The position numbers and the translations under genes were made by a program. Positions 4,590 through 13,769 of a DNA stretch of 13,889 nt are shown in pieces. The notes beneath the pieces were generated by a model that ran no database searches, was not told the DNA's origin, and saw only the letters and a program-made list of their open reading frames with translations. Each line of letters begins with the position of its first letter. Position 1 is the stretch's first letter. Source of the DNA: Planctomycetota bacterium (GTDB lineage Bacteria > Planctomycetota > Phycisphaerae > SM23-33); contig QNCB01000007.1 in assembly GCA_003644335.1 (NCBI GenBank), positions 1 through 13,889 on the forward strand. The letters run 5' to 3'.

Positions 4590-4863
4590 ATCTTGTCTCC
4601 TGAAAAAGTTTTCAGTTTTCAGTTATCATTTATCAGTAACAGCAAAAACAGCAAAAAAGAAAAAACATGGATTCCCGCCTTCGCGGGAATGACACGGGGG
4701 GGGGCATTGGTTATTGTCTATTCATCGGGTTGGGCATTCATTGGTTATTGGGCATTGGTTCTTCAATGGGCATTGGGTATTTGGACATTGGGCATTTTCC
4801 CGTCATTCGTTATTCGTCATTGATTCCTAATTCTGGTTTCGTCATTCGAAATTCATCGGGACG
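4590..4863. repeat. Gene-free gap made of degenerate word repeats
   Basis: Apart from the methyltransferase ribosome-binding site at its left end, I see no gene here. From left to right it holds TTTTCAG-type words (4602-4640); a run of CAGCAAAAA; a palindromic element ATTCCCGC-CTTC-GCGGGAAT (4671-4690) followed by GACA; a G-run (4696-4704); several copies of GGGCATTGG or close variants (about 4702-4796); and a block of GTCATTCG/TTATTCG words (4802-4851). The last block matches one at 9498-9555, and the palindrome matches one at 11949-11968. Short translations across it are shadows. Confidence 0.75.
4669..4694. repeat. GGATTCCCGC...GCGGGAATGACA palindromic repeat, copy 1
   Basis: ATTCCCGC (4671-4678) and GCGGGAAT (4683-4690) form a perfect 8-bp stem with loop CTTC. 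The flanks ATGG and GACA are shared with the second, less perfect copy at 11945-11971. Repeats of this form are common in gaps of many bacterial genomes. It would fold in RNA from either strand but lacks a T-run. Confidence 0.7.
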
Positions 4864-5643
4864 CTAGCCTAGCCAGTCTCGCAGGATGTCCCACTCGGCG
4901 GGGTCGAAACGAGCGAAGATAAGGAAGGCTATGTAAGCCGCGGTCATAATGTCGTAAGGCCAGCTTGCCCGCGGGTACAACCAAGGCTGAATTTTGTGAT
5001 ACCACTTGCCATCGAGTCGCGCGTTTGTTACGGGTCGCCGACCAGCTAAAATCGCCCATGTGTGCCCAGCTCGGCGGAACATCGTGAAGATCGGCAAAAT
5101 ACTCTGCTCGACCACCAGCGCAGCTGGGTTGCATGCGAAGGCTGCGATGATGACGGCGGAGCATCGCTCGGGCCTCTGCCAGTAGCCCACCTGGCAGCTG
5201 AAAATAAAATCTTCCGACCGGGCTTTGATGTAGGATATCATCACCGCTTCAAAGAACCCCAGCATGGACAAAGCCACGAACGTAAGATTGGCTGGGGACT
5301 GCCAAGCAAAGCCCATCGCCAAGCCTGCCCATATCGCAAAGTCGCCCGCCCTGTCCATACAGCTATCGAGAAACGCCCCGAACTTCGTCGCCTGGCCTGA
5401 AAACCGGGCCACCGCGCCGTCGAGCATATCGCTGCAGAAACTGATATACAACAGCACCGCAGCCAGAATACACCAGTCCATGTTGTTCGTCTTGAGAGCC
5501 AGTGCGAAACACACACCCGCCCCGACCGTCGCAGCTGCACCAAAAACGGTCAGCATGTTCGGCGTAACGCCCGCCCGAACCAAAGCCCGGGCCACCGCGT
5601 CCCGCATGGAAGAAACAAACCAACCTATAGCTCTGCCGATCAT
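4864..5643 (-). CDS. CDP-alcohol phosphatidyltransferase, probably phosphatidylinositol(-phosphate) synthase
   Basis: An integral membrane enzyme of 259 residues that joins a CDP-activated lipid to an alcohol. The complete family motif D-x2-D-G-x2-A-R-x8-G-x3-D-x3-D is present: D72, D75, G76, A79, R80, G89, D93 and D97; these acidic residues bind the metal ions and CDP. Several hydrophobic segments surround it (about 33-70, 98-135, 162-190, 230-245). The family also makes phosphatidylglycerol-phosphate, phosphatidylserine and others. The acceptor is inferred from the upstream neighbour ino1, only 25 nt away, and from general likeness to actinobacterial phosphatidylinositol-phosphate synthases (SYIKARSEDF...GYWQRPER). 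The start has GGAG (complement of 5654-5657) 9 nt upstream, inside the short gap, so the pair is very likely one operon. The family is certain; inositol specificity is likely. Confidence 0.88.
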   Translation of the reverse strand: MIGRAIGWFVSSMRDAVARALVRAGVTPNMLTVFGAAATVGAGVCFALALKTNNMDWCILAAVLLYISFCSDMLDGAVARFSGQATKFGAFLDSCMDRAGDFAIWAGLAMGFAWQSPANLTFVALSMLGFFEAVMISYIKARSEDFIFSCQVGYWQRPERCSAVIIAAFACNPAALVVEQSILPIFTMFRRAGHTWAILAGRRPVTNARLDGKWYHKIQPWLYPRASWPYDIMTAAYIAFLIFARFDPAEWDILRDWLG

Positions 5644-5668
5644 ATTCGCTTGCTCCGGTTACAGCCTG

Positions 5669-6817
5669 TTATTTCACCGTTGCGTCCGCTGTCAGCTCGG
5701 CTGATTCATATTGGCCTGTCTGGTCGGCGATGAAATCTTCCAGCATTGTCCGGGCCTGGTCGTCGGTGAATTGCTTCGGCGGGTGCTTCATGGCATAGGC
5801 ACTGATAGCTTCCAAAGGCCCAGCCAACTTGCGGTCGCGGGCGAGTTTGCACACACGGACTGCGTCGATGGTTTCCCCCGCGGAGTTGGGCGAATCTTCC
5901 ACACTCAGCCTGGCTTCGATGTGCAGCGGCACGCCGCCAAAACCCCGAGCCTCGATACGAAGAGCGCAGACCTTGTTGTCCTTCTGCCAGGGCACAAACT
6001 CGGCTGGGCCTATATGGACATCATCAGCGGGCAGCGGCATGTCGAGCTGACTTTGCACGGCGTCGGTCTTGGATATCTTTTTGCACTTTAGTCTGCTGCG
6101 TTCGAGCATGTTCAGGAAGTCGGTATTGCCCGCCCAGTTTAGCTGATATGTGTGGTCTATCTTCGCGCCGCGGTCGTGCATCATACGGGCTAATACGCGG
6201 TGGGTTATCGTCGCGCCGACCTGGGCTTTGATATCGTCGCCGATGCACGGGATGCCAGCCTGGGTGAACCGCTGGGCCCATGCGGGGTTGGAAACTATAA
6301 AAACCGGGATGCAGTTTATCAGGCTCACGCCGGTTTCCAGGCAGCACTCAGCGTAGAATTCCGTCGCCCCCTGGCTGCCAACGGGCAGATAATTCATGAG
6401 AATCTCAGCCTGGCTGTCGCGCAGGAGATTGCATATATCTTCCTTCGTAGCTGGGGTCGCCGTGGCCAGGCGAAAGGCCTGGTCTTCCGGAAACTCCGCC
6501 ATGTGAGGAGCTGCGCCGTCCAGGGGGTTGCCCATAGCCACGACCACGTCGTCGTAGTTGATATTGTCGTAGAAAACCTTGGTGTTGTTTGGCTTGGCGA
6601 AGATAGCTTCGTGCAGAGGCTTGCCAACCTTTCGGACATCGACGTCGATAGCGGCGACGATTTCGATATCGCCGGGGGTGTATTCGCCCAGCGTCGGATG
6701 GGCCAGGCCTACGACTTCCTGGCCGGTCTCGAACACCTCGCGGTAATAGCCTATCCCCTGCACCAACGAAGATGTGCAGTTTCCAACGCCAACAATTGCA
6801 ACCCTGATTTCACTCAT
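5669..6817 (-). CDS. ino1: Inositol-3-phosphate synthase
   Basis: This 382-residue cytoplasmic enzyme converts glucose 6-phosphate to 1D-myo-inositol 3-phosphate using bound NAD. The N-terminal Rossmann motif is IVGVGNCTSSL (residues 8-18). Family blocks follow: MNYLPVGSQGATEFY, GDDIKAQVGATITHRVLA, TYQLNWAGNTDFLNMLERSR and KKISKTDAVQSQ. Length and sequence fit the short actinobacterial/archaeal type and not the ~500-residue eukaryotic type. I chose ATG 6817: family members start just before this Rossmann strand, and a GGAG lies 10 nt upstream; a TTG seven codons earlier overlaps that site. It is the first gene of an operon with the CDP-alcohol phosphatidyltransferase, so its product probably feeds an inositol phospholipid. 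Transcription is predicted from a good promoter at 6903-6932. Confidence 0.96.
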   Translation of the reverse strand: MSEIRVAIVGVGNCTSSLVQGIGYYREVFETGQEVVGLAHPTLGEYTPGDIEIVAAIDVDVRKVGKPLHEAIFAKPNNTKVFYDNINYDDVVVAMGNPLDGAAPHMAEFPEDQAFRLATATPATKEDICNLLRDSQAEILMNYLPVGSQGATEFYAECCLETGVSLINCIPVFIVSNPAWAQRFTQAGIPCIGDDIKAQVGATITHRVLARMMHDRGAKIDHTYQLNWAGNTDFLNMLERSRLKCKKISKTDAVQSQLDMPLPADDVHIGPAEFVPWQKDNKVCALRIEARGFGGVPLHIEARLSVEDSPNSAGETIDAVRVCKLARDRKLAGPLEAISAYAMKHPPKQFTDDQARTMLEDFIADQTGQYESAELTADATVK

Positions 6818-6902
6818 AATTTCCAGTCTCCGACGCAACGCGTCATTCTATTCCAGCCCGCGGACGCGCGCCAAAGTCAGACGCCGTCACAACCAAGCCC
6901 TG

Positions 6903-7763: not shown

Positions 7764-7785
7764 AATGCCCCGCCAGACGGCGTAT

Positions 7786-7858
<73 letters not shown>

Positions 7859-7949
7859 GTTCAGGGGGTTGCTGGGCAGCAGCTTGGCGTCGAAAAAACG
7901 ACAGCGGCTAATACACAGCAAAAAAAAACTCTTGACCCCTTCTTTTTTT

Positions 7950-7974: not shown

Positions 7975-8166
7975 GTGGCGAGCGAAACCCGATATGCTAT
8001 AGTCCTGAAGATGCTCAAGGCCAGGGGCTATATGCTGGGTCGTGTCCGGGGTTCGCATCATGTTTTTACCAAGCCGGGCGAATTGCCGCTGAGCATCCCG
8101 GTTCATAAAGGGAAGGTGAAATCCTATTATGTCCGTCAAATCGAAAAAATCCAAATTGACAGCTAG
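7975..8166 (+). CDS. hicA: HicA-family toxin (type II toxin-antitoxin)
   Basis: A 63-residue HicA/YcfA-type mRNA interferase, a ribosome-independent endoribonuclease with a double-stranded-RNA-binding-like fold. The conserved core is IVLKMLKARGYMLGRVRGSHHVF, containing the catalytic histidine in the GSH context, followed by LPLSIPVHKGKVKSYYVRQIEKI. The reading frame is open further upstream, but a TTG start at 7948 would translate the operator. I therefore place the start at GTG 7975, which also lies 7 nt after the TATACT box, so the message may be leaderless; no Shine-Dalgarno is present. The out-of-frame ATG at 7973 ends after nine codons. The gene overlaps hicB by 38 nt. The family is well supported; the start is uncertain. 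Confidence 0.85.
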   Translation: MASETRYAIVLKMLKARGYMLGRVRGSHHVFTKPGELPLSIPVHKGKVKSYYVRQIEKIQIDS

Positions 8167-8524
8167 GCCTTTTAAGAAGGCAGACCTGGCCCGGGCCCGG
8201 CAGATAGCTGAGTGCTACCAGATTATCGTCAATCTTGAAGATGGCCTGTGGTATGGACATGGCTTGGAGATGCCCCATGTTTTTGCCGACGGCGATACGG
8301 TCGAGGCTTGCGTGGAGGACATGCGAGAAGCTCTGGTCGCCGCGGTCGCCACGATGATCGAGGCGGGGCAAACTCCACCCAGGCCCGCCAGCTGCGGAGC
8401 CAGGACCGAGCAGGTGAATGTTCGGATATCCTCGGAGGAAAAAATTTTGCTGGAATCCAGGGCGAGGCAGAAGGGTTTTCGGGGCGTGTCCGATTTTCTG
8501 CGAGCGACCGCTCTTGCGGATTGA
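8129..8524 (+). CDS. hicB: HicB-family antitoxin with C-terminal ribbon-helix-helix domain
   Basis: This 131-residue partner of HicA has three parts. A basic N-terminal arm (1-28) is extra relative to short HicB proteins. A HicB core (about 29-90) carries YQIIVNLEDGLWYGHGLEMPHVFADGDTVEACVEDMREAL, split here only for description: YQIIVNLEDG, then WYGHGLEMP, then GDTVEACVEDMREAL. An Arc/MetJ-like DNA-binding tail (about 92-129) reads RTEQVNVRISSEEK then GFRGVSDFLRATAL. It should neutralise HicA and bind the palindrome at 7950-7967. The ATG at 8129 is within hicA, with AAGGTGA (8113-8119) 9 nt upstream, so translation of the two is linked. No terminator is evident before dapB, 81 nt further on. 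Confidence 0.9.
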   Translation: MSVKSKKSKLTARPFKKADLARARQIAECYQIIVNLEDGLWYGHGLEMPHVFADGDTVEACVEDMREALVAAVATMIEAGQTPPRPASCGARTEQVNVRISSEEKILLESRARQKGFRGVSDFLRATALAD

Positions 8525-9409: not shown

Positions 9410-9660
9410 AACAGGAGTCAGAAGTCGGGATTCAGGAGTCAGAAACAGCAGGACACGAATGACACGAATGAAAAACGAATGACACGAATTTTTGTTTTTC
9501 GTTATTCGGCTTTCGTCATTGATTCGTCATTCATCATTCGGATTTCGTCATTCGCTGTTTTCCTATTGCCTACTTGTCTAATCCCTATTGCCTAATTCTC
9601 TATTGCCTATTCCCTGGTTACCTAATAGAATAATCTCTTGTATTGCTTTGACGAATCGAC
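9410..9660. repeat. Gene-free gap made of four repeat-word blocks
   Basis: No coding sequence is seen. In order: AGGAGTCAGAAGTCGGGATTC (9413-9442 block), related to 11911-11943; ACACGAAT words (9452-9489), related to those at 10497-10645; CGTTATTCG/GTCATTCG words (9498-9555), related to 4802-4851; and TATTGCCTA words (9562-9610), the reverse complement of the family at 7580-7611. The ACACGAAT and TTCGT blocks are partly complementary and could fold on each other. A promoter is predicted at the right end. Confidence 0.75.
9603..9631 (+). promoter_or_regulatory. Predicted promoter with a repeat-derived -35 box
   Basis: TTGCCT (9603-9608, four of six) is followed after exactly 17 nt by TAGAAT (9626-9631, five of six). 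Transcription would begin near 9638, about 33 nt before the lipoprotein start and ahead of its ribosome-binding site. The -35 box is part of the last TATTGCCTA repeat word. Confidence 0.45.
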
Positions 9661-9670
9661 GGGAGTGCTT

Positions 9671-10075
9671 GTGCGAAACGGCAGATGGTTTATCTTCTTG
9701 GCGGGGCTGGCCTTGGCAGCGGGCATGGCGGGCTGTGTAGCTTCGACTCCCCAGGGCGGCACGGTGTATCAAAGGTTGCAAAGCGAAGACCCGGCTGTGC
9801 GAATCGACGCGATTATCCAGGCGGGAAATCGCAAGGACACCAAAGCTATAGCTCTGCTGGTCGACCGCCTTGACGACGTGCTGCCAGACGTCAGGCTGTT
9901 CGCGTCTATCTCGTTGAGAAAAATCACCGGAAAGGATTTCGGCTGGCGGCAGTACGACCCGCCAGGTCTACGCGACCAAGCCATAGGGAGGTGGCGAAAA
10001 TGGGTAAGCAAGCAACATGCCAAGCAGGCGTCTATATCGGCTCCGGCGAGCGAGCCTGCAAAGGCGGACAAGTGA
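9671..10075 (+). CDS. Small lipoprotein with a HEAT-like domain
   Basis: The 134-residue product has a lipoprotein signal peptide: MRNGRW, a hydrophobic core, and a lipobox ending MAGC with the lipidated cysteine at residue 22. After a short linker, about residues 38-85 form a HEAT-like helical repeat (DPAVRIDAIIQAG, AIALLVDRLDD, VRLFASISLRKITG). The C-terminus is charged (KQHAKQ...EPAKADK). HEAT repeats usually hold partner proteins. GTG 9671 is preferred because GGGAG (9661-9665) lies 5 nt upstream; the frame stays open to a TTG at 9638. The gene overlaps the next one, an RsbW-type kinase, in the GTGA arrangement, so the two are translationally coupled. A role as an envelope sensor for the kinase is possible but only inferred. 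Confidence 0.78.
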   Translation: MRNGRWFIFLAGLALAAGMAGCVASTPQGGTVYQRLQSEDPAVRIDAIIQAGNRKDTKAIALLVDRLDDVLPDVRLFASISLRKITGKDFGWRQYDPPGLRDQAIGRWRKWVSKQHAKQASISAPASEPAKADK

Positions 10076-10482
10076 ACGTGATGAATTTGGAGATTGAGAT
10101 TCTCTCCGACCCAGCTGAGCTTACGCGAGTTCGGCAAGAGGCAGAAGCCTTCGCTATAAAGGCTGGGCTTGATGAAAAATGCGCCGGGCGGGTAGTGTTG
10201 GCGGTGGACGAGGCATTGACCAACATCATCCGGCACGCTTACGCAGGCCGGGCTGACGGGCCTATCGAGATTTCGATGCGGGCTTCGGGCTTGGAGTTGT
10301 CGATAGTTATTCGCGATTATGGCCAGGTGGTACACCCAGCTGCGATCCGCTCGCGCGACCTCGACGACGTCCGACCAGGCGGCTTGGGTGTACATATTAT
10401 GCACGAATGCATGGACAAAGTAACCTACGCGCCAGCAGGCCAAGGCGGCGGGACGGTGCTGGCGATGTCGAAAAAAATATGA
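10072..10482 (+). CDS. RsbW/SpoIIAB-like anti-sigma factor serine kinase (GHKL ATPase)
   Basis: A 136-residue histidine-kinase-like ATPase of the RsbW/SpoIIAB type. These bind a sigma factor, and phosphorylate a STAS antagonist on serine, thereby switching partners. The N-box is VDEALTNIIRHAY (Glu47, Asn51, His55), the G1-like box is IRDYGQ (Asp82, Gly84), and the G2 box is PGGLGVHIMHECMD (103-115). No transmembrane or sensor domain is present. GTG 10072 is chosen because it overlaps the preceding stop (GTGA) and has AAAGG 7 nt upstream; ATG 10081 is the alternative and would remove three residues. A STAS protein follows 271 nt later and a sigma factor lies at the right end. The family is well supported; the actual sigma partner is inferred. 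Confidence 0.88.
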   Translation: MNVMNLEIEILSDPAELTRVRQEAEAFAIKAGLDEKCAGRVVLAVDEALTNIIRHAYAGRADGPIEISMRASGLELSIVIRDYGQVVHPAAIRSRDLDDVRPGGLGVHIMHECMDKVTYAPAGQGGGTVLAMSKKI

Positions 10483-10753
10483 CCGTTCCTAAAGCGAACC
10501 ACGAATAGACACGAATAAACACGAATTTTTTTGAAAAGAAAAAGAAAAAAAAACAAACTACGAAAGACGCGAAAACAGATTTTTTGAAAAAGAAAACAAA
10601 AACAGCAGAACCACGGGTGAACACGAATAAACACGAATTTTTTTTAAATAAAAAAACTTCATGTTCTTCATGTCCTTCATGGTGAGTTTCGTTTTTTCAT
10701 ATAGCTATGACGGGTTACAGAAAATTTGGTCGGCTTGGTTCGGGAAAGAGATA
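10483..10753. repeat. Gene-free gap with ACACGAAT arrays and A-rich tracts
   Basis: No gene is seen. Two closely similar blocks, 10497-10532 and 10609-10645, each consist of CCACG..., then ACACGAATAAACACGAATTT ending in a T-run. Between them lie A-rich tracts and a short GATTTTTTGAAAA echo. Next is CTTCATGTTCTTCATGTCC (10658-10676), a further word type. The last ~65 nt (10690-10753) lead into the STAS gene; I see CATATAG/TATGAC but no convincing promoter. The open frame through here upstream of 10754 is not coding. Confidence 0.72.
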
Positions 10754-11092
10754 ATGGAAAATTCGCCAATTAGTGATGTTCGCTGGACGGACAATGCGGT
10801 GGTGGTAGATGTAGCGGGGGATATCGACCTGCACCGCAGCCCGCAATTGCAACGCGGGCTGTTGGACGTCCTAAACAAGAAGCCCGAGCGGATACTCGTG
10901 AACCTCGCCGGCGTGGGGTACATGGACTCCTCCGGCGTGGCGTCGCTGGTGAAGCTCCTCAGCAGAACCAAAAAACTCGGCGTCACACTCGTGCTGCTAA
11001 GCCCTAGCAATAAAGTTCGCAGCATTTTGGAAATCACCAGACTCGACAGCGTATTTAGCATCTGCGAAAGCGAAACCCAAGCGATGGCATGA
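10754..11092 (+). CDS. STAS-domain protein: anti-anti-sigma factor (RsbV/SpoIIAA-like) or MlaB-like subunit
   Basis: A single STAS domain of 112 residues. The sequence VVVDVAGDIDLHRSPQLQ is the usual first strand and helix, and LVNLAGVGYMDSSGVASLV contains the DSSG motif (58-61), whose Ser59 aligns with the serine phosphorylated by RsbW/SpoIIAB kinases. The end, VRSILEITRLDSVFSI, is also typical. Two roles are possible. An RsbW-like kinase gene lies upstream, which argues for an anti-anti-sigma factor. The stop codon overlaps the MlaE start (ATGA), and in the Mla system a STAS protein, MlaB, binds the ATPase, which argues for a transporter subunit. I chose ATG 10754 because it begins the domain; GGGAA (10742-10746) lies about 8 nt upstream. 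The 31-codon upstream extension lies in repeat DNA. Confidence 0.88.
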   Translation: MENSPISDVRWTDNAVVVDVAGDIDLHRSPQLQRGLLDVLNKKPERILVNLAGVGYMDSSGVASLVKLLSRTKKLGVTLVLLSPSNKVRSILEITRLDSVFSICESETQAMA

Positions 11093-11907
11093 CGATGGCG
11101 GAGAGACAAAACAACATTATCGAGTCGCTGGGCCTGCGGGCAATGGGCCTGTGCGAGTACCTCGGCGGGCTGACGTTGCTGCTCGGTGCCACGGCGGTGT
11201 GGACTGTCCGAAGCCTGGCAAGGCCCAGATGGCGAGACATCCACAGCCTGAGCGAGCAGGTCGTCCGAGTGGGCATTCGCAGCGTTGGTATCGTAGCCCT
11301 CGTGCAGGGGTTTATCGGGGCGATATTGGCGTTGCAGCTCGTGCCGACGTTGGAGCAGTATGGCCAGGAGTCGCAGGTGGCGGCGATAATCGGTATCGGC
11401 GGGTTCAGGATGCTTGGGCCTATTTTCACCGCGGTGGTGCTCAGCGGCTTTGCAGGTGCGTCTATCGCTGCGGAGCTTGGCACGATGGTCGTAGCTGAGG
11501 AAATCGAAGCTCTCGAAGCAATGTCCCTGCCGCCCGTGCGGTTCCTCGTCGTGCCGCGAGTGTTGGCGACATTTATCGTAATGCTGCTGCTGACGACCTT
11601 CGCCGATTTGATGATAGCGTTGGGGGGCTATCTGGTTTCTCGCCTTGCGCTTGGCCCGGCGGTTTATCTGGAATACTGGCAGAACATGCGCGACACGCTG
11701 GAAGGGTCGGACTACGTTTCAGGCCTGGTCCAGGGCGGCGTCTTCGGCGTGCTGCTGGGACTCATCGCCTGCTTTGAAGGACTGAAAGTCAAAGGCGGTG
11801 CCCAGGGCGTCGGCAAGGCGACAACTATGACCGTAGTAAACTCAATCGTCGCAATAGTCCTCGCTGCGTGCGTATGCACGATAGTATTCTATCTTTTCAA
11901 ACTGTAA
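11089..11907 (+). CDS. mlaE: MlaE-family lipid ABC transporter permease
   Basis: The 272-residue membrane protein belongs to the MlaE/TTG2B (DUF140) family, the permease of transporters that move phospholipids between inner and outer membranes. The signature GASIAAELGTMVVAEEIEAL (124-144 region) is the family's conserved cytoplasmic-membrane motif. The C-terminal GVGKATTMTVVNS is also diagnostic. About five hydrophobic segments are visible, including SVGIVALVQGFIGAILAL and FIVMLLLTTFADLMIAL. ATG 11089 overlaps the STAS stop codon, so translation is coupled; ATG 11095 is an alternative start. An MlaF-type ATPase follows after a 100-nt repeat-filled gap. No MCE-domain (MlaD) gene, which would bind lipid in the periplasm, is nearby. 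Such a missing subunit may be encoded elsewhere. Confidence 0.94.
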   Translation: MTMAERQNNIIESLGLRAMGLCEYLGGLTLLLGATAVWTVRSLARPRWRDIHSLSEQVVRVGIRSVGIVALVQGFIGAILALQLVPTLEQYGQESQVAAIIGIGGFRMLGPIFTAVVLSGFAGASIAAELGTMVVAEEIEALEAMSLPPVRFLVVPRVLATFIVMLLLTTFADLMIALGGYLVSRLALGPAVYLEYWQNMRDTLEGSDYVSGLVQGGVFGVLLGLIACFEGLKVKGGAQGVGKATTMTVVNSIVAIVLAACVCTIVFYLFKL

Positions 11908-12007
11908 AAAATCAGAAGTCAGGAGACAGAAGTCAGGATTCAGAATGGATTCCCTCGCGGGCGGGAATGACAAAAAATCCGTGTAATCCGTGGACTCTTT
12001 TGAAACT
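11908..12007. repeat. mlaE-mlaF gap filled with repeat words
   Basis: The 100 nt between the two transporter genes consist almost wholly of shared words: CAGAAGTCAGGAGACAG and GAAGTCAGGATTCAG (11911-11944), the palindromic element ATGGATTCCC...GGGAATGACA (11945-11971), and AATCCGTGTAATCCGTGGAC (11976-11995) with following TC. The last word ends 10 nt before the mlaF ATG. No ribosome-binding site of normal form is left for mlaF. Confidence 0.72.
11945..11971. repeat. GGATTCCC...GGGAATGACA repeat, copy 2
   Basis: ATTCCC (11949-11954) and GGGAAT (11963-11968) pair around TCGCGGGC. The flanks ATGG and GACA match copy 1 at 4667-4694, but the inner stem differs (TCGCGGGCGGG against CGCCTTCGCGGG). 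This pattern of strict ends and a loose centre is usual for such elements. Confidence 0.6.
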
Positions 12008-12865
12008 ATGACAGACCAACAGAACAACTTGGAACCTGTGATTCGGGTGGTGGATTTGGTTAAGCGGTTTGGTGATCACACCGTGCTGAACGGCGTAACC
12101 TTTGACGTTTTTCCTGGCGAGATGGTCGTTATCATGGGCGGCAGTGGCTGTGGTAAGAGCACGCTGTTGCGACACATCATAGGCTCGATTTTGCCCACTA
12201 GCGGACGAGTGGAATTGCTTGGCGAAGACCTGGCCAAAATCGACGAGCCGCAGCTTGACGAGCTGCGCAAACGGTTCGGCATATTGTTTCAGTCCGGGGC
12301 GCTGTTCAACTCGATGACCGTGGGCGAGAATGTCGCTCTGCCATTGCAGGAGCATACCGACCTGGACGCCGACACGATCGATATCATGGTTAAGATCAAG
12401 CTCGAACAGGTCGACCTCCTGGCTGCGGAAGACCTTATGCCCGCTGAGATATCCGGCGGTATGAAAAAACGGGCGGGCCTGGCCCGGGCTATCGCGATGG
12501 ACCCCGAAATACTGTTTTACGACGAACCCTCAGCTGGGCTTGACCCGGTAACCAGCGCGGAAATCGATCAACTGATGATAGACCTCACCCGCAAGCTGGG
12601 CGTCTCCGGCGTGGTCGTAACGCACGAAATGGACTCCGCCTTCGCTATCGCCGATAGGATGATTATGCTCGACAAGGGCCGAGTGCTGATGAACGCTCCG
12701 CGAGCGGAGTTCGAGAAAATCCGCGACGGCGACCCGACCGGCGACGAGAAAATCGACCTGATCCGCCAGTTCCTCCGCGGCGACCCCGACGGGCCTATCA
12801 CGCAAAGACGCCAAGACAGCGGCTACGAGGAAGACCTCCTAGCCACCGCTGGCGGGTTTGGCTAA
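12008..12865 (+). CDS. mlaF: MlaF-family ABC transporter ATPase
   Basis: The 285-residue cytoplasmic ATPase powers the MlaE permease. Walker A is GGSGCGKST (44-52), the Q-loop lies in ILFQSGALF (92-100), the signature is ISGGMKKRAGLARAIA (148-163), Walker B is ILFYDEP (168-174), and the switch histidine is His206 in VTHEMDSAF. The GALFNSM and ISGGMKKR segments are specific for the MlaF/TTG2A group among ABC proteins. The C-terminal tail after about residue 240 (DEKIDLIRQFLRG...) is also family-like. I prefer ATG 12008; a GTG at 11990 would start inside a repeat word. Neither has a proper Shine-Dalgarno. It converges with the sigma-factor gene, 115 nt downstream, across a hairpin-rich gap. Confidence 0.95.
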   Translation: MTDQQNNLEPVIRVVDLVKRFGDHTVLNGVTFDVFPGEMVVIMGGSGCGKSTLLRHIIGSILPTSGRVELLGEDLAKIDEPQLDELRKRFGILFQSGALFNSMTVGENVALPLQEHTDLDADTIDIMVKIKLEQVDLLAAEDLMPAEISGGMKKRAGLARAIAMDPEILFYDEPSAGLDPVTSAEIDQLMIDLTRKLGVSGVVVTHEMDSAFAIADRMIMLDKGRVLMNAPRAEFEKIRDGDPTGDEKIDLIRQFLRGDPDGPITQRRQDSGYEEDLLATAGGFG

Positions 12866-12885
12866 ATGTGGCACCAAGCGGGAAT

Positions 12886-12942
12886 GTAGCACAGCCGCCC
12901 CCGGCTGTGTTCTTCGTGGCGTGGGCGTCTCGCCCATGCGGA
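12886..12942. repeat. Compound element: CACAGCCG hairpin plus REP-like copy 3
   Basis: In the gap between the convergent mlaF and sigma-factor genes, CACAGCCG-CCCC-CGGCTGTG (12890-12909) forms a perfect 8-bp stem. Then, after TTCTTCGTGGC, comes GTGGGCG-TCT-CGCCCATG (12921-12938), the third copy of the GGGCGTCTCGCCC family. Both hairpins are symmetrical enough to fold in transcripts from either side, so they may end both operons, though neither has a long T-run. Frames across it give well-worn spurious peptides such as GVGVSPM. Confidence 0.68.
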
Positions 12943-12980
12943 AACGTGGTTGCAAACGCCGCAACGACGGCACCTGGCAA

Positions 12981-13769
12981 TCAGGCAGCCAACTTGGCAG
13001 GTTCTTCGGCAAATCGTTTTTTCAGGCGGGAGATTATCTCCGCGTGTTTTTGGCTTACCCGCCCTTCGGAAATGGCCAGGGTCTGGGCGATGTCCTTCAT
13101 CAGTGCCCCTTGGTAGTAGTATCGCACGATGATGCTCCGCTCGCCGCGGTTCATTTCCCGCAGCATGACGTTCCACAGGTCGTGTTGAATCGCAGAGCGG
13201 TCGGGGGGCGGTTCTTTTTGGCTTGGCGGCAGGGCCCATTCGTCATTGTCTTGCTGCTCGACGCCGCCACAGCCTGATATGTTGTGTATGGAAATTATCT
13301 TGGCTGGGTTGGCGTAGCGGCAGCAGCGGGCGTATTCTCTCGGCGAGACGTTCAGCTCCTGTTTCAGCTCGGTTTCCGTCGGTGCTCGGCCCAACCTGCT
13401 TCGCACTGCCCAACTGGCCTGGTCAAACAGCCTGGCGCGTCGGCCAATCGACCGCGGCACCCAGTTGCCCTGTCGCAGTTCGTCGAGCATGGCTCCGCGA
13501 ATTCGTATCCATCCATAGGTCGAGAAGACAACGCCTCGAGCAGGGTTGAAATTGTCCACCGCGTTTACCAGCCCGAGGTGCCCCGCGGAGACCAGGTCGT
13601 CGATATTCACCGTCGGGGAGGAGTAAAGTCTGCTCCGCAATGTCTCGGCGATATGCCGAACCAGCGGAATATGGTACTCGATGAGTTTTTCCCGGGCGGC
13701 CATATCGCCATGGTCTCTAAAGCGATTCCACCAGTTAGCGACTCGATTGTCATCATCTACGGTAGACAT
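12981..13769 (-). CDS. Sigma-70 family, FliA/WhiG/SigF-type (group 3) sigma factor
   Basis: A 262-residue alternative sigma factor. Region 2 (about 26-108) contains EYHIPLVRHIAETL, NIDDLVSAGHLGLVNAVDNF, FSTYGWIRIRGAMLDELR and NWVPRS, the last being typical of the FliA/WhiG/SigB/SigF group. Region 3 spans about 112-160. Region 4 (about 198-252) carries the DNA-binding helix-turn-helix MKDIAQTLAISEGRVSQKHAEI, split as MKDIAQTLAISEG and RVSQKHAEI. The start at 13769 is fixed by GGAGG 7 nt upstream, which is present as an exact tandem duplicate; the open frame before it is non-coding. A kinase and a STAS protein of the kind that control such sigma factors lie a few kilobases away on the other strand. 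Group 3 is well supported; whether it serves stress, development or motility cannot be told. Confidence 0.93.
   Translation of the reverse strand: MSTVDDDNRVANWWNRFRDHGDMAAREKLIEYHIPLVRHIAETLRSRLYSSPTVNIDDLVSAGHLGLVNAVDNFNPARGVVFSTYGWIRIRGAMLDELRQGNWVPRSIGRRARLFDQASWAVRSRLGRAPTETELKQELNVSPREYARCCRYANPAKIISIHNISGCGGVEQQDNDEWALPPSQKEPPPDRSAIQHDLWNVMLREMNRGERSIIVRYYYQGALMKDIAQTLAISEGRVSQKHAEIISRLKKRFAEEPAKLAA

What the first reader, a model, noticed from the sequence alone, without database searches (positions are those of the whole stretch)
9671..13769. Partner-switching sigma circuit interleaved with a Mla lipid-transport operon
Within 4 kb lie an RsbW/SpoIIAB-like kinase, a STAS protein with the phosphorylatable DSSG motif, MlaE, MlaF and a group-3 sigma factor. 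The STAS gene overlaps mlaE (ATGA), as a MlaB subunit would, yet its motif is that of a kinase-controlled anti-anti-sigma factor. One protein might therefore serve both, so that phosphorylation would link lipid transport at the outer membrane to release of the sigma factor. The gene order and motifs are seen; the dual role is inference.
Basis: partly seen in the sequence, partly recalled or inferred. Interest (0 to 1): 0.75.

Follow-up and report, generated by a model that had tools for sequence, protein, structure and literature searches.

The report
Kinase-switched lipid transporter operon in planctomycetes
In many planctomycete genomes a small serine kinase is encoded together with its likely target, a regulatory subunit of a lipid-transport pump, which gives a testable candidate for how cells switch this pump on and off; the nearby sigma factor looks like a chance neighbour.

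Summary
The genes are there, but the sigma factor does not belong with them: it is convergent, not conserved beside the locus, and sits where relatives carry an MlaD-like gene. The conserved unit is HEAT protein – RsbW/SpoIIAB-like kinase – STAS – mlaE (– mlaF – mlaD-like). Of 150 genomes of one planctomycete class, 70 have a strong Mla-type kinase. Of 69 such loci fetched, STAS follows the kinase in 67, STAS and mlaE in 63; a sigma-like hit occurs in 2. Ser59 of DSSG is Ser in 67 of 67 and aligns with E. coli MlaB Thr52, at the centre of the MlaF–MlaB interface. The linked MlaF keeps the C-terminal extension that contacts MlaB in E. coli; other MlaF-like ATPases lack it (0 of 12). Best reading: the kinase phosphorylates an MlaB-like subunit and so controls a lipid ABC transporter. 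Two papers proposed MlaB phosphoregulation; my searches found none naming a kinase. Phosphorylation is inferred, not shown. Against it: Ser persists in 23 of 36 kinase-less loci, and the Ser-to-Gly loss is one clade. Verdict: new variant of a known kind, testable.

The parts
9671..10075 (+). HEAT-repeat protein, putative lipoprotein, usual first gene of the cluster (GTG start)
   Evidence: PF13646 above cut-off; upstream of the kinase in 67 of 69 loci; lipobox-like motif in 33 of 67 by a crude pattern
10072..10482 (+). RsbW/SpoIIAB-like serine kinase (ATG alternative start 10081)
10496..10655 (.). AT-rich spacer with CACGAATAAACACGAA-type repeats, separating kinase and STAS in this genome
10754..11092 (+). 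STAS protein, MlaB-like/anti-anti-sigma-like, 112 aa
   Evidence: PF01740 E 4.8e-21; TIGR00377 above cut-off; model pLDDT 92
10928..10930 (+). Ser59 codon of the D58-S59-S60-G61 motif, aligned with E. coli MlaB Thr52
   Evidence: invariant in the window and 35 homologues and in 67 of 67 kinase-linked STAS
11089..11907 (+). mlaE permease (MlaE-1 paralogue), ATGA overlap with STAS
   Evidence: PF02405 E 6.1e-62
12008..12865 (+). mlaF ABC ATPase (MlaF-1 paralogue)
   Evidence: PF00005; best NCBIfam hit MlaF, below its cut-off
12764..12862 (+). MlaF C-terminal extension RQFL..GP..Y..DLL, matching the E. coli handshake that contacts MlaB
   Evidence: E. coli Tyr261/Leu265/Leu266 from PMC7367683
12981..13769 (-). 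FliA/WhiG-like sigma factor, convergent; judged an incidental neighbour, not part of the system
   Evidence: not conserved here

Best explanation
An Mla-type lipid ABC transporter carries its own phospho-switch. The STAS protein is the MlaB-like subunit that docks on the MlaF helical subdomain and on the C-terminal extension of the partner MlaF. The adjacent RsbW/SpoIIAB-like kinase phosphorylates it on Ser59, in the middle of that docking face. This would eject STAS from MlaF or block its binding, and so lower assembly or ATPase activity of MlaFE; a PP2C phosphatase encoded elsewhere would reverse it. Shown by sequence: conserved gene order, conserved phosphosite, conserved kinase nucleotide-site residues, conserved MlaB-docking extension on MlaF. 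Inferred: phosphorylation of Ser59 by this kinase, its effect on MlaF binding, the direction of control, the phosphatase and the input signal. The sigma factor is not part of it.
For: (1) Kinase-anchored survey: 70 of 150 genomes have a kinase match of 88.9 bits or more. 69 of these 70 loci were fetched (the other is L001): STAS directly downstream in 67, STAS and mlaE in 63, HEAT upstream in 67, mlaF also in 36. (2) MlaE-anchored: 31 of 46 loci have kinase-STAS-mlaE; in 18 of the 31 the STAS domain starts at or before the kinase stop. (3) In four loci where mlaE does not follow, kinase and STAS are still together (L143, L153, L161, L176). (4) Ser59 is Ser in 67 of 67; kinase Glu 68 of 69, Asn 68 of 69 (exception both times L153), G1 Asp 69 of 69, three G2 glycines 69 of 69. 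(5) Ser59 aligns with E. coli MlaB Thr52, at the centre of the MlaF-MlaB interface; T52E weakens MlaF binding and T52A abolishes ATPase activity (PMC7367683, PMC5016091). (6) The MlaF extension core is in 15 of 15 (window, 13 of MlaF-1 type, E. coli), 36 of 37 kinase-linked (L180 lacks it) and 33 of 34 from kinase-less loci, but in 0 of 12 other MlaF-like ATPases and 0 of 6 from outgroup loci without STAS. No STAS lies beside the 11 MlaE-2 loci read. (7) All 12 Phycisphaerae genomes checked have a second, different kinase beside another STAS, and 2-11 SpoIIE/PP2C matches.
Confidence: 0.6

Rival explanations
1. One reading: unphosphorylated STAS both serves MlaFE and titrates the kinase, which otherwise holds a sigma factor, so lipid transport is tied to sigma release.
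For: The kinase is of the sigma-binding RsbW/SpoIIAB family; its nearest solved folds are SpoIIAB, RsbW and UsfX. A FliA/WhiG-like sigma gene ends 115 bp from mlaF in the window.
Against: The sigma gene is convergent. A sigma-like hit occurs in 2 of 69 kinase loci and in 1 of the 31 kinase loci of the MlaE survey, about 9 kb away. The closest sigma homologues in 12 of 12 genomes are not near MlaE-1. An MlaD-like gene follows mlaF in 35 of 36 kinase loci with mlaF. Binding to an unlinked sigma factor is not excluded.
Confidence: 0.1
2. Kinase and STAS are an ordinary partner-switch for an unlinked regulator, merely co-transcribed with mlaE because they control envelope genes; STAS is not a transporter subunit.
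For: STAS passes the anti-sigma-factor-antagonist model TIGR00377 but not the mlaB equivalog (24 against a cut-off of 90 bits), and its fold is nearest to SpoIIAA-type proteins. In four loci the pair is not followed by mlaE.
Against: STAS stays beside mlaE and mlaF in a clade without kinase and without the phosphosite. The MlaF with the MlaB-docking extension is the one of the STAS-bearing system. A separate kinase-STAS pair is present in all 12 genomes checked.
Confidence: 0.2
3. The kinase-like protein no longer phosphorylates: it binds STAS as a chaperone or as a nucleotide-sensing clamp that sequesters it from MlaF.
For: The G1-box glycine is replaced in 14 of 69. The ATP-lid region has low model confidence, residues 94-104. 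Ser is kept in 23 of 36 loci where no such kinase is found.
Against: N-box Glu and Asn, G1 Asp and G2 glycines are almost invariant, and the window keeps the G1 glycine (invariant in the window and 35 homologues).
Confidence: 0.1

Closest known systems
E. coli MlaFEDB and its STAS subunit MlaB
   Same: STAS protein encoded with MlaE/MlaF; Ser/Thr at the same aligned position; MlaF C-terminal extension with Tyr and two Leu at the docking helix
   Different: The E. coli K-12 stretch read has mlaF-E-D-C-B and no kinase gene; MlaB is a shorter STAS; phosphorylation of MlaB was proposed by PMC5016091 and PMC7367683 but not shown
SpoIIAB-SpoIIAA and RsbW-RsbV partner switches
   Same: Kinase and STAS folds, DSSG phosphosite, adjacent genes here
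   Different: No conserved sigma gene beside the pair; the conserved neighbours are a lipid permease, its ATPase and an MlaD-like protein
Partner switches with other or unknown outputs (SypE-SypA, BtrW-BtrV)
   Same: Serine kinase acting on a STAS-only protein (review PMC8256260, passages)
   Different: Those outputs are biofilm control and type III secretion; a search of that review's text for 'Mla' found nothing
STAS-MlaE (DUF140) gene neighbours and fusions
   Same: STAS proteins beside or fused to MlaE were noted in 2007 and 2016 (PMC1810536, PMC5016091, passages)
   Different: The passages seen mention no RsbW-type kinase in those clusters

Membership tests
RsbW/SpoIIAB serine kinases | HATPase_c_2 domain with N, G1 and G2 boxes | tested here: met
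   PF13581; residues; G1 glycine replaced in 14 of 69
RsbW/SpoIIAB serine kinases | Fold of SpoIIAB/RsbW | tested here: met
RsbW/SpoIIAB serine kinases | NCBIfam equivalog score for SpoIIAB or RsbW | tested here: not met
   50.5 against 135 and 49.8 against 145 bits; hence 'RsbW/SpoIIAB-like'
RsbW/SpoIIAB serine kinases | Conserved linkage to a sigma gene | tested here: not met
   2 of 69 loci with any sigma-like hit in the fetched stretch
RsbW/SpoIIAB serine kinases | Phosphorylates STAS, binds sigma | not testable with these tools
   needs biochemistry
Phosphorylatable STAS-only proteins | STAS domain with Ser at the position of SpoIIAA Ser58 | tested here: met
MlaB | STAS encoded with mlaE/mlaF | tested here: met
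MlaB | Ser/Thr aligned with Thr52 | tested here: met
MlaB | Partner MlaF with the docking extension | tested here: met
MlaB | Minimal STAS fold without fifth strand and last helix (E. coli) | tested here: not met
   model has strand 102-104 and helix 107-111 (E. coli feature)
MlaB | NCBIfam mlaB equivalog score | tested here: not met
   24.2 against 90 bits; hence called MlaB-like, not MlaB
MlaB | Binds MlaF and is required for its function | not testable with these tools
   needs pull-down
Mla transporter | MlaE permease and MlaF ATPase | tested here: met
   PF02405 and PF00005 above cut-off; NCBIfam cut-offs for TIGR00056 and MlaF not reached
Mla transporter | MlaD next to mlaF | tested here: not met
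   no MlaD-like hit in the window; present after mlaF in 35 of 36 kinase loci with mlaF; one of five such proteins over the Pfam MlaD cut-off
FliA/WhiG sigma factors | Family score | tested here: inconclusive
   best NCBIfam hits FliA_WhiG and WhiG, 164 bits, below cut-offs 189.6 and 343

The most novel reading that the evidence does not exclude
A dedicated RsbW-type kinase directly gates an Mla lipid ABC transporter by phosphorylating its STAS subunit at the MlaF interface: a partner switch whose partner is an ABC ATPase instead of an anti-sigma/sigma pair. In different genomes it has been added to, or lost from, the same HEAT-STAS-mlaE-mlaF operon.
Probability: 0.55. Interest if true: 0.75.

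Novelty: new variant of a known kind. Interest (0 to 1): 0.6.

Why it matters
Two E. coli papers proposed that MlaB is controlled by phosphorylation but reported no phosphorylation, and the passages I saw name no kinase (PMC5016091, PMC7367683). A kinase gene conserved beside an MlaB-like gene makes that question directly testable with soluble proteins. If true, an ABC transporter would be controlled by a partner-switch kinase, and the outputs of partner switching would widen from transcription to lipid traffic. It also warns against calling such pairs sigma regulators by name alone.

Tried and rejected
Sigma link: tested by flank surveys and homologue positions and rejected as conserved. Idea that kinase loss and Ser loss are coupled repeatedly: not supported; the Gly-site group is one clade and other kinase-less loci keep Ser. 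A first strict pattern for the MlaF extension matched only 29 of 74 and was replaced by a core pattern after seeing the misses. A lipobox pattern for the HEAT protein gave 33 of 67, so lipoprotein status is only putative. Promoter and terminator scan: 4 promoter-like sites against 2.4 expected, 9 terminator-like against 5.3; not used. Rfam found only the two tRNAs. Phosphatase near the locus: by the coordinates, none within 10 kb of kinase-STAS-mlaE in the Phycisphaerae genomes searched. No complex of STAS with MlaF or with the kinase was modelled, and MlaE and MlaF were not modelled.

Rows dropped before counts: ten further kinase matches (57.7-84.6 bits, loci L178, L179, L181-L188) were fetched; none has mlaE beside it and two have a STAS downstream. 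L180 (G087, 76 bits) was first added to the set after I had seen its neighbours (counts: 70 loci, STAS 68, STAS and mlaE 64, mlaF 37); the counts given now leave it out. The 26 remaining weaker matches were not fetched.

Papers: PMC7367683 passages and sections 7, 9, 11; PMC5016091, PMC8256260, PMC1810536 and PMC10665443 passages only. SpoIIAA Ser58 is named in a passage of PMC8256260. Statements about print rest only, in a library without most subscription journals and without bioRxiv.
Full report
What is in the window. One search lists the ORFs, the families. On the plus strand lie a HEAT-repeat protein (GTG 9671 to 10075), an HATPase_c_2 kinase (10072/10081-10482), a STAS protein (10754-11092), mlaE (11089-11907) and mlaF (12008-12865). 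The FliA/WhiG-like sigma gene (12981-13769) is on the minus strand and convergent with mlaF, so the claim of an interleaved operon is wrong. No whole genome is held for the window; the best MlaE match is titled a Phycisphaerales bacterium (64% identity).

The conserved unit, seen from mlaE. A scan of genome contigs with the window's MlaE returned 46 loci. In 31 of 46 (titles: Phycisphaerae or Phycisphaerales, other planctomycetes, or 'uncultured bacterium') kinase, STAS and mlaE are contiguous and in that order; a HEAT hit stands upstream in 30 of the 31. In 18 of the 31 the STAS domain begins at or before the kinase stop; in 9 it begins 3-58 bases later, in 4 it begins 166-175 bases later. 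Two loci (L028, L029) have STAS-mlaE-mlaF without kinase, one (L033, Spartobacteria, contig starts just upstream) has STAS-mlaE, and the other 12 have neither kinase nor STAS by my profiles. A sigma hit was seen in the flank of 1 of the 31 (L016, about 9 kb away).

The conserved unit, seen from the kinase. In 150 genomes drawn evenly from the class of G001 (the genome titled Phycisphaerales), 149 have MlaE and 90 have a kinase match at E 1e-12. Seventy of these have 88.9 bits or more; I fetched 69 of the 70 (the other is L001). Of the 69, STAS is directly downstream in 67, STAS and mlaE in 63, mlaF also in 36, HEAT upstream in 67, and a sigma-like hit somewhere in the fetched stretch in 2 (L120, 4.5 kb upstream; L150, 20 bits). 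L143, L153, L161 and L176 have kinase-STAS without mlaE following; L158 and L173 have neither. One weaker match (L180, 76 bits) also has kinase-STAS-mlaE-mlaF, and ten other weaker matches have no mlaE. An MlaD-like gene follows mlaF in 35 of the 36 loci with mlaF; the exception, L175, is a contig that ends there. One of five such proteins passes the Pfam MlaD cut-off, and the five are 32-56% identical. The window has its sigma gene at that place, which looks like a rearrangement in this lineage. The closest sigma homologue is present in 12 of 12 genomes searched, never near MlaE-1; in G008 it lies about 1.7 kb from the other MlaE paralogue.

Is the STAS protein a transporter subunit? Ser59 aligns with E. 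coli MlaB Thr52. In the E. coli structure Thr52 lies at the centre of the MlaF-MlaB interface, and the MlaF C-terminal extension inserts Tyr261, Leu265 and Leu266 there (PMC7367683, sections 7 and 9). The window's MlaF has the extension with Tyr and two Leu at the aligned places. Of 12 Phycisphaerae genomes, 11 have two MlaE (one has one), and most have two MlaF-like ATPases at E 1e-40. MlaF-1 is 62-74% identical to the window's in 11 of 12 (48% in G008) and is next to mlaE only in G001 and G008. The extension core is in 15 of 15 (the window, 10 unlinked MlaF-1, L001, L028, L029, E. coli), in 36 of 37 kinase-linked (L180 lacks it) and 33 of 34 from kinase-less loci, in 0 of 12 others (11 MlaF-2 and a third ATPase of G001) and in 0 of 6 outgroup MlaF. 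No STAS lies beside the 11 MlaE-2 loci. L216, one of two kinase-less loci with upstream sequence but no STAS hit, is the one whose MlaF lacks the core; the other, L220, keeps it. Against exclusivity, a shorter extension was reported for Veillonella, which lacks MlaB (PMC10665443).

Does the kinase act on this STAS? The pairing says so, but the co-loss test is weak. Of 107 genomes with MlaE-1 (269 bits or more), 39 have no Mla-type kinase; 38 loci were fetched and L028 stands for the 39th. A STAS hit is beside mlaE in 36 of 39; the site is Ser in 23 and Gly in 13. Against 64 Ser and 0 Gly in kinase rows (the window, L180 and 62 others) this gives Fisher p 3e-7, but the 13 Gly rows are one clade (SH-aLRT 100, quick tree), so it is a single event. 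The tree needs 15 changes of kinase presence, at least 10 forced by supported branches, and independent pairs give no significance. Some absences may be gaps in draft genomes. Ser59 therefore has a role besides kinase control, as Thr52 has in E. coli.

Other modules. All 12 Phycisphaerae genomes have a second, different kinase beside its own STAS; the Mla-linked kinases together with the Spartobacteria one are split from it (100/100). G008 and G017, two genomes of the Gly-site kind, have one strong kinase match each; in G008 it is the second type, in G017 its neighbours were not read. SpoIIE/PP2C matches number 2-11 in 13 genomes, so a phosphatase is available but unlinked. In Spartobacteria G013 the closest kinase follows a GAF-SpoIIE phosphatase, while its STAS(DSSG)-mlaE lies on another contig.

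Mechanism and limits. I take the STAS protein to be an MlaB-like subunit and the kinase its regulator; phosphate on Ser59 would disturb the MlaF interface, as T52E does in E. coli. Not shown: phosphorylation, binding, direction of control, signal, phosphatase. The window lacks an MlaD-like gene, so the MCE partner of this transporter in this organism is unknown.

Known or new. MlaB phosphorylation was proposed in 2016 and 2020, and STAS genes beside or fused to MlaE genes were known. My ten literature searches listed no paper that joins an RsbW-type kinase with MlaB or MlaE. I rate it a new variant of a known kind: a partner-switch kinase whose conserved partner is a lipid ABC transporter.

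Noticed in passing
window 9671-10075; HEAT gene in 67 of 69 kinase loci: A small HEAT-repeat, possibly lipid-anchored protein is the usual first gene of the cluster, also in most kinase-less versions; its role is unknown and it could be an envelope-side sensor or accessory.
   Followed up: partly
window 10496-10655, 9463-9553, 4796-4854, 11945-11972: Intergenic gaps hold dispersed short repeats (CACGAATAAACACGAA, TTCGTCATTCG, GATTCCC types), including the gap between kinase and STAS; the first pattern occurs 4 times against 0.09 expected.
   Followed up: partly
L096 2321-4110 (Spartobacteria G013): The nearest kinase seen outside planctomycetes is encoded right after a GAF-SpoIIE phosphatase, a candidate for the missing phosphatase of the switch.
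   Followed up: partly
L143, L153, L161, L176; L227, L228: Kinase-STAS pairs not followed by mlaE; in two of these genomes (G074, G140) the MlaE-1 gene elsewhere has no STAS beside it.
   Followed up: partly
L064-L073: In ten of twelve genomes mlaF-1 is not next to any mlaE; a gene that looks like murD (name by eye, not by profile) is conserved near it across these loci.
   Followed up: no
window 4864-6838 (-): An inositol-phosphate-synthase-like gene and a CDP-alcohol phosphatidyltransferase are adjacent, suggesting inositol phospholipid synthesis.
   Followed up: no
window 8129-8524 (+): HicB-like antitoxin/ribbon-helix-helix protein near tRNA-Lys (7785-7859); no toxin partner was looked for.
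   Followed up: no
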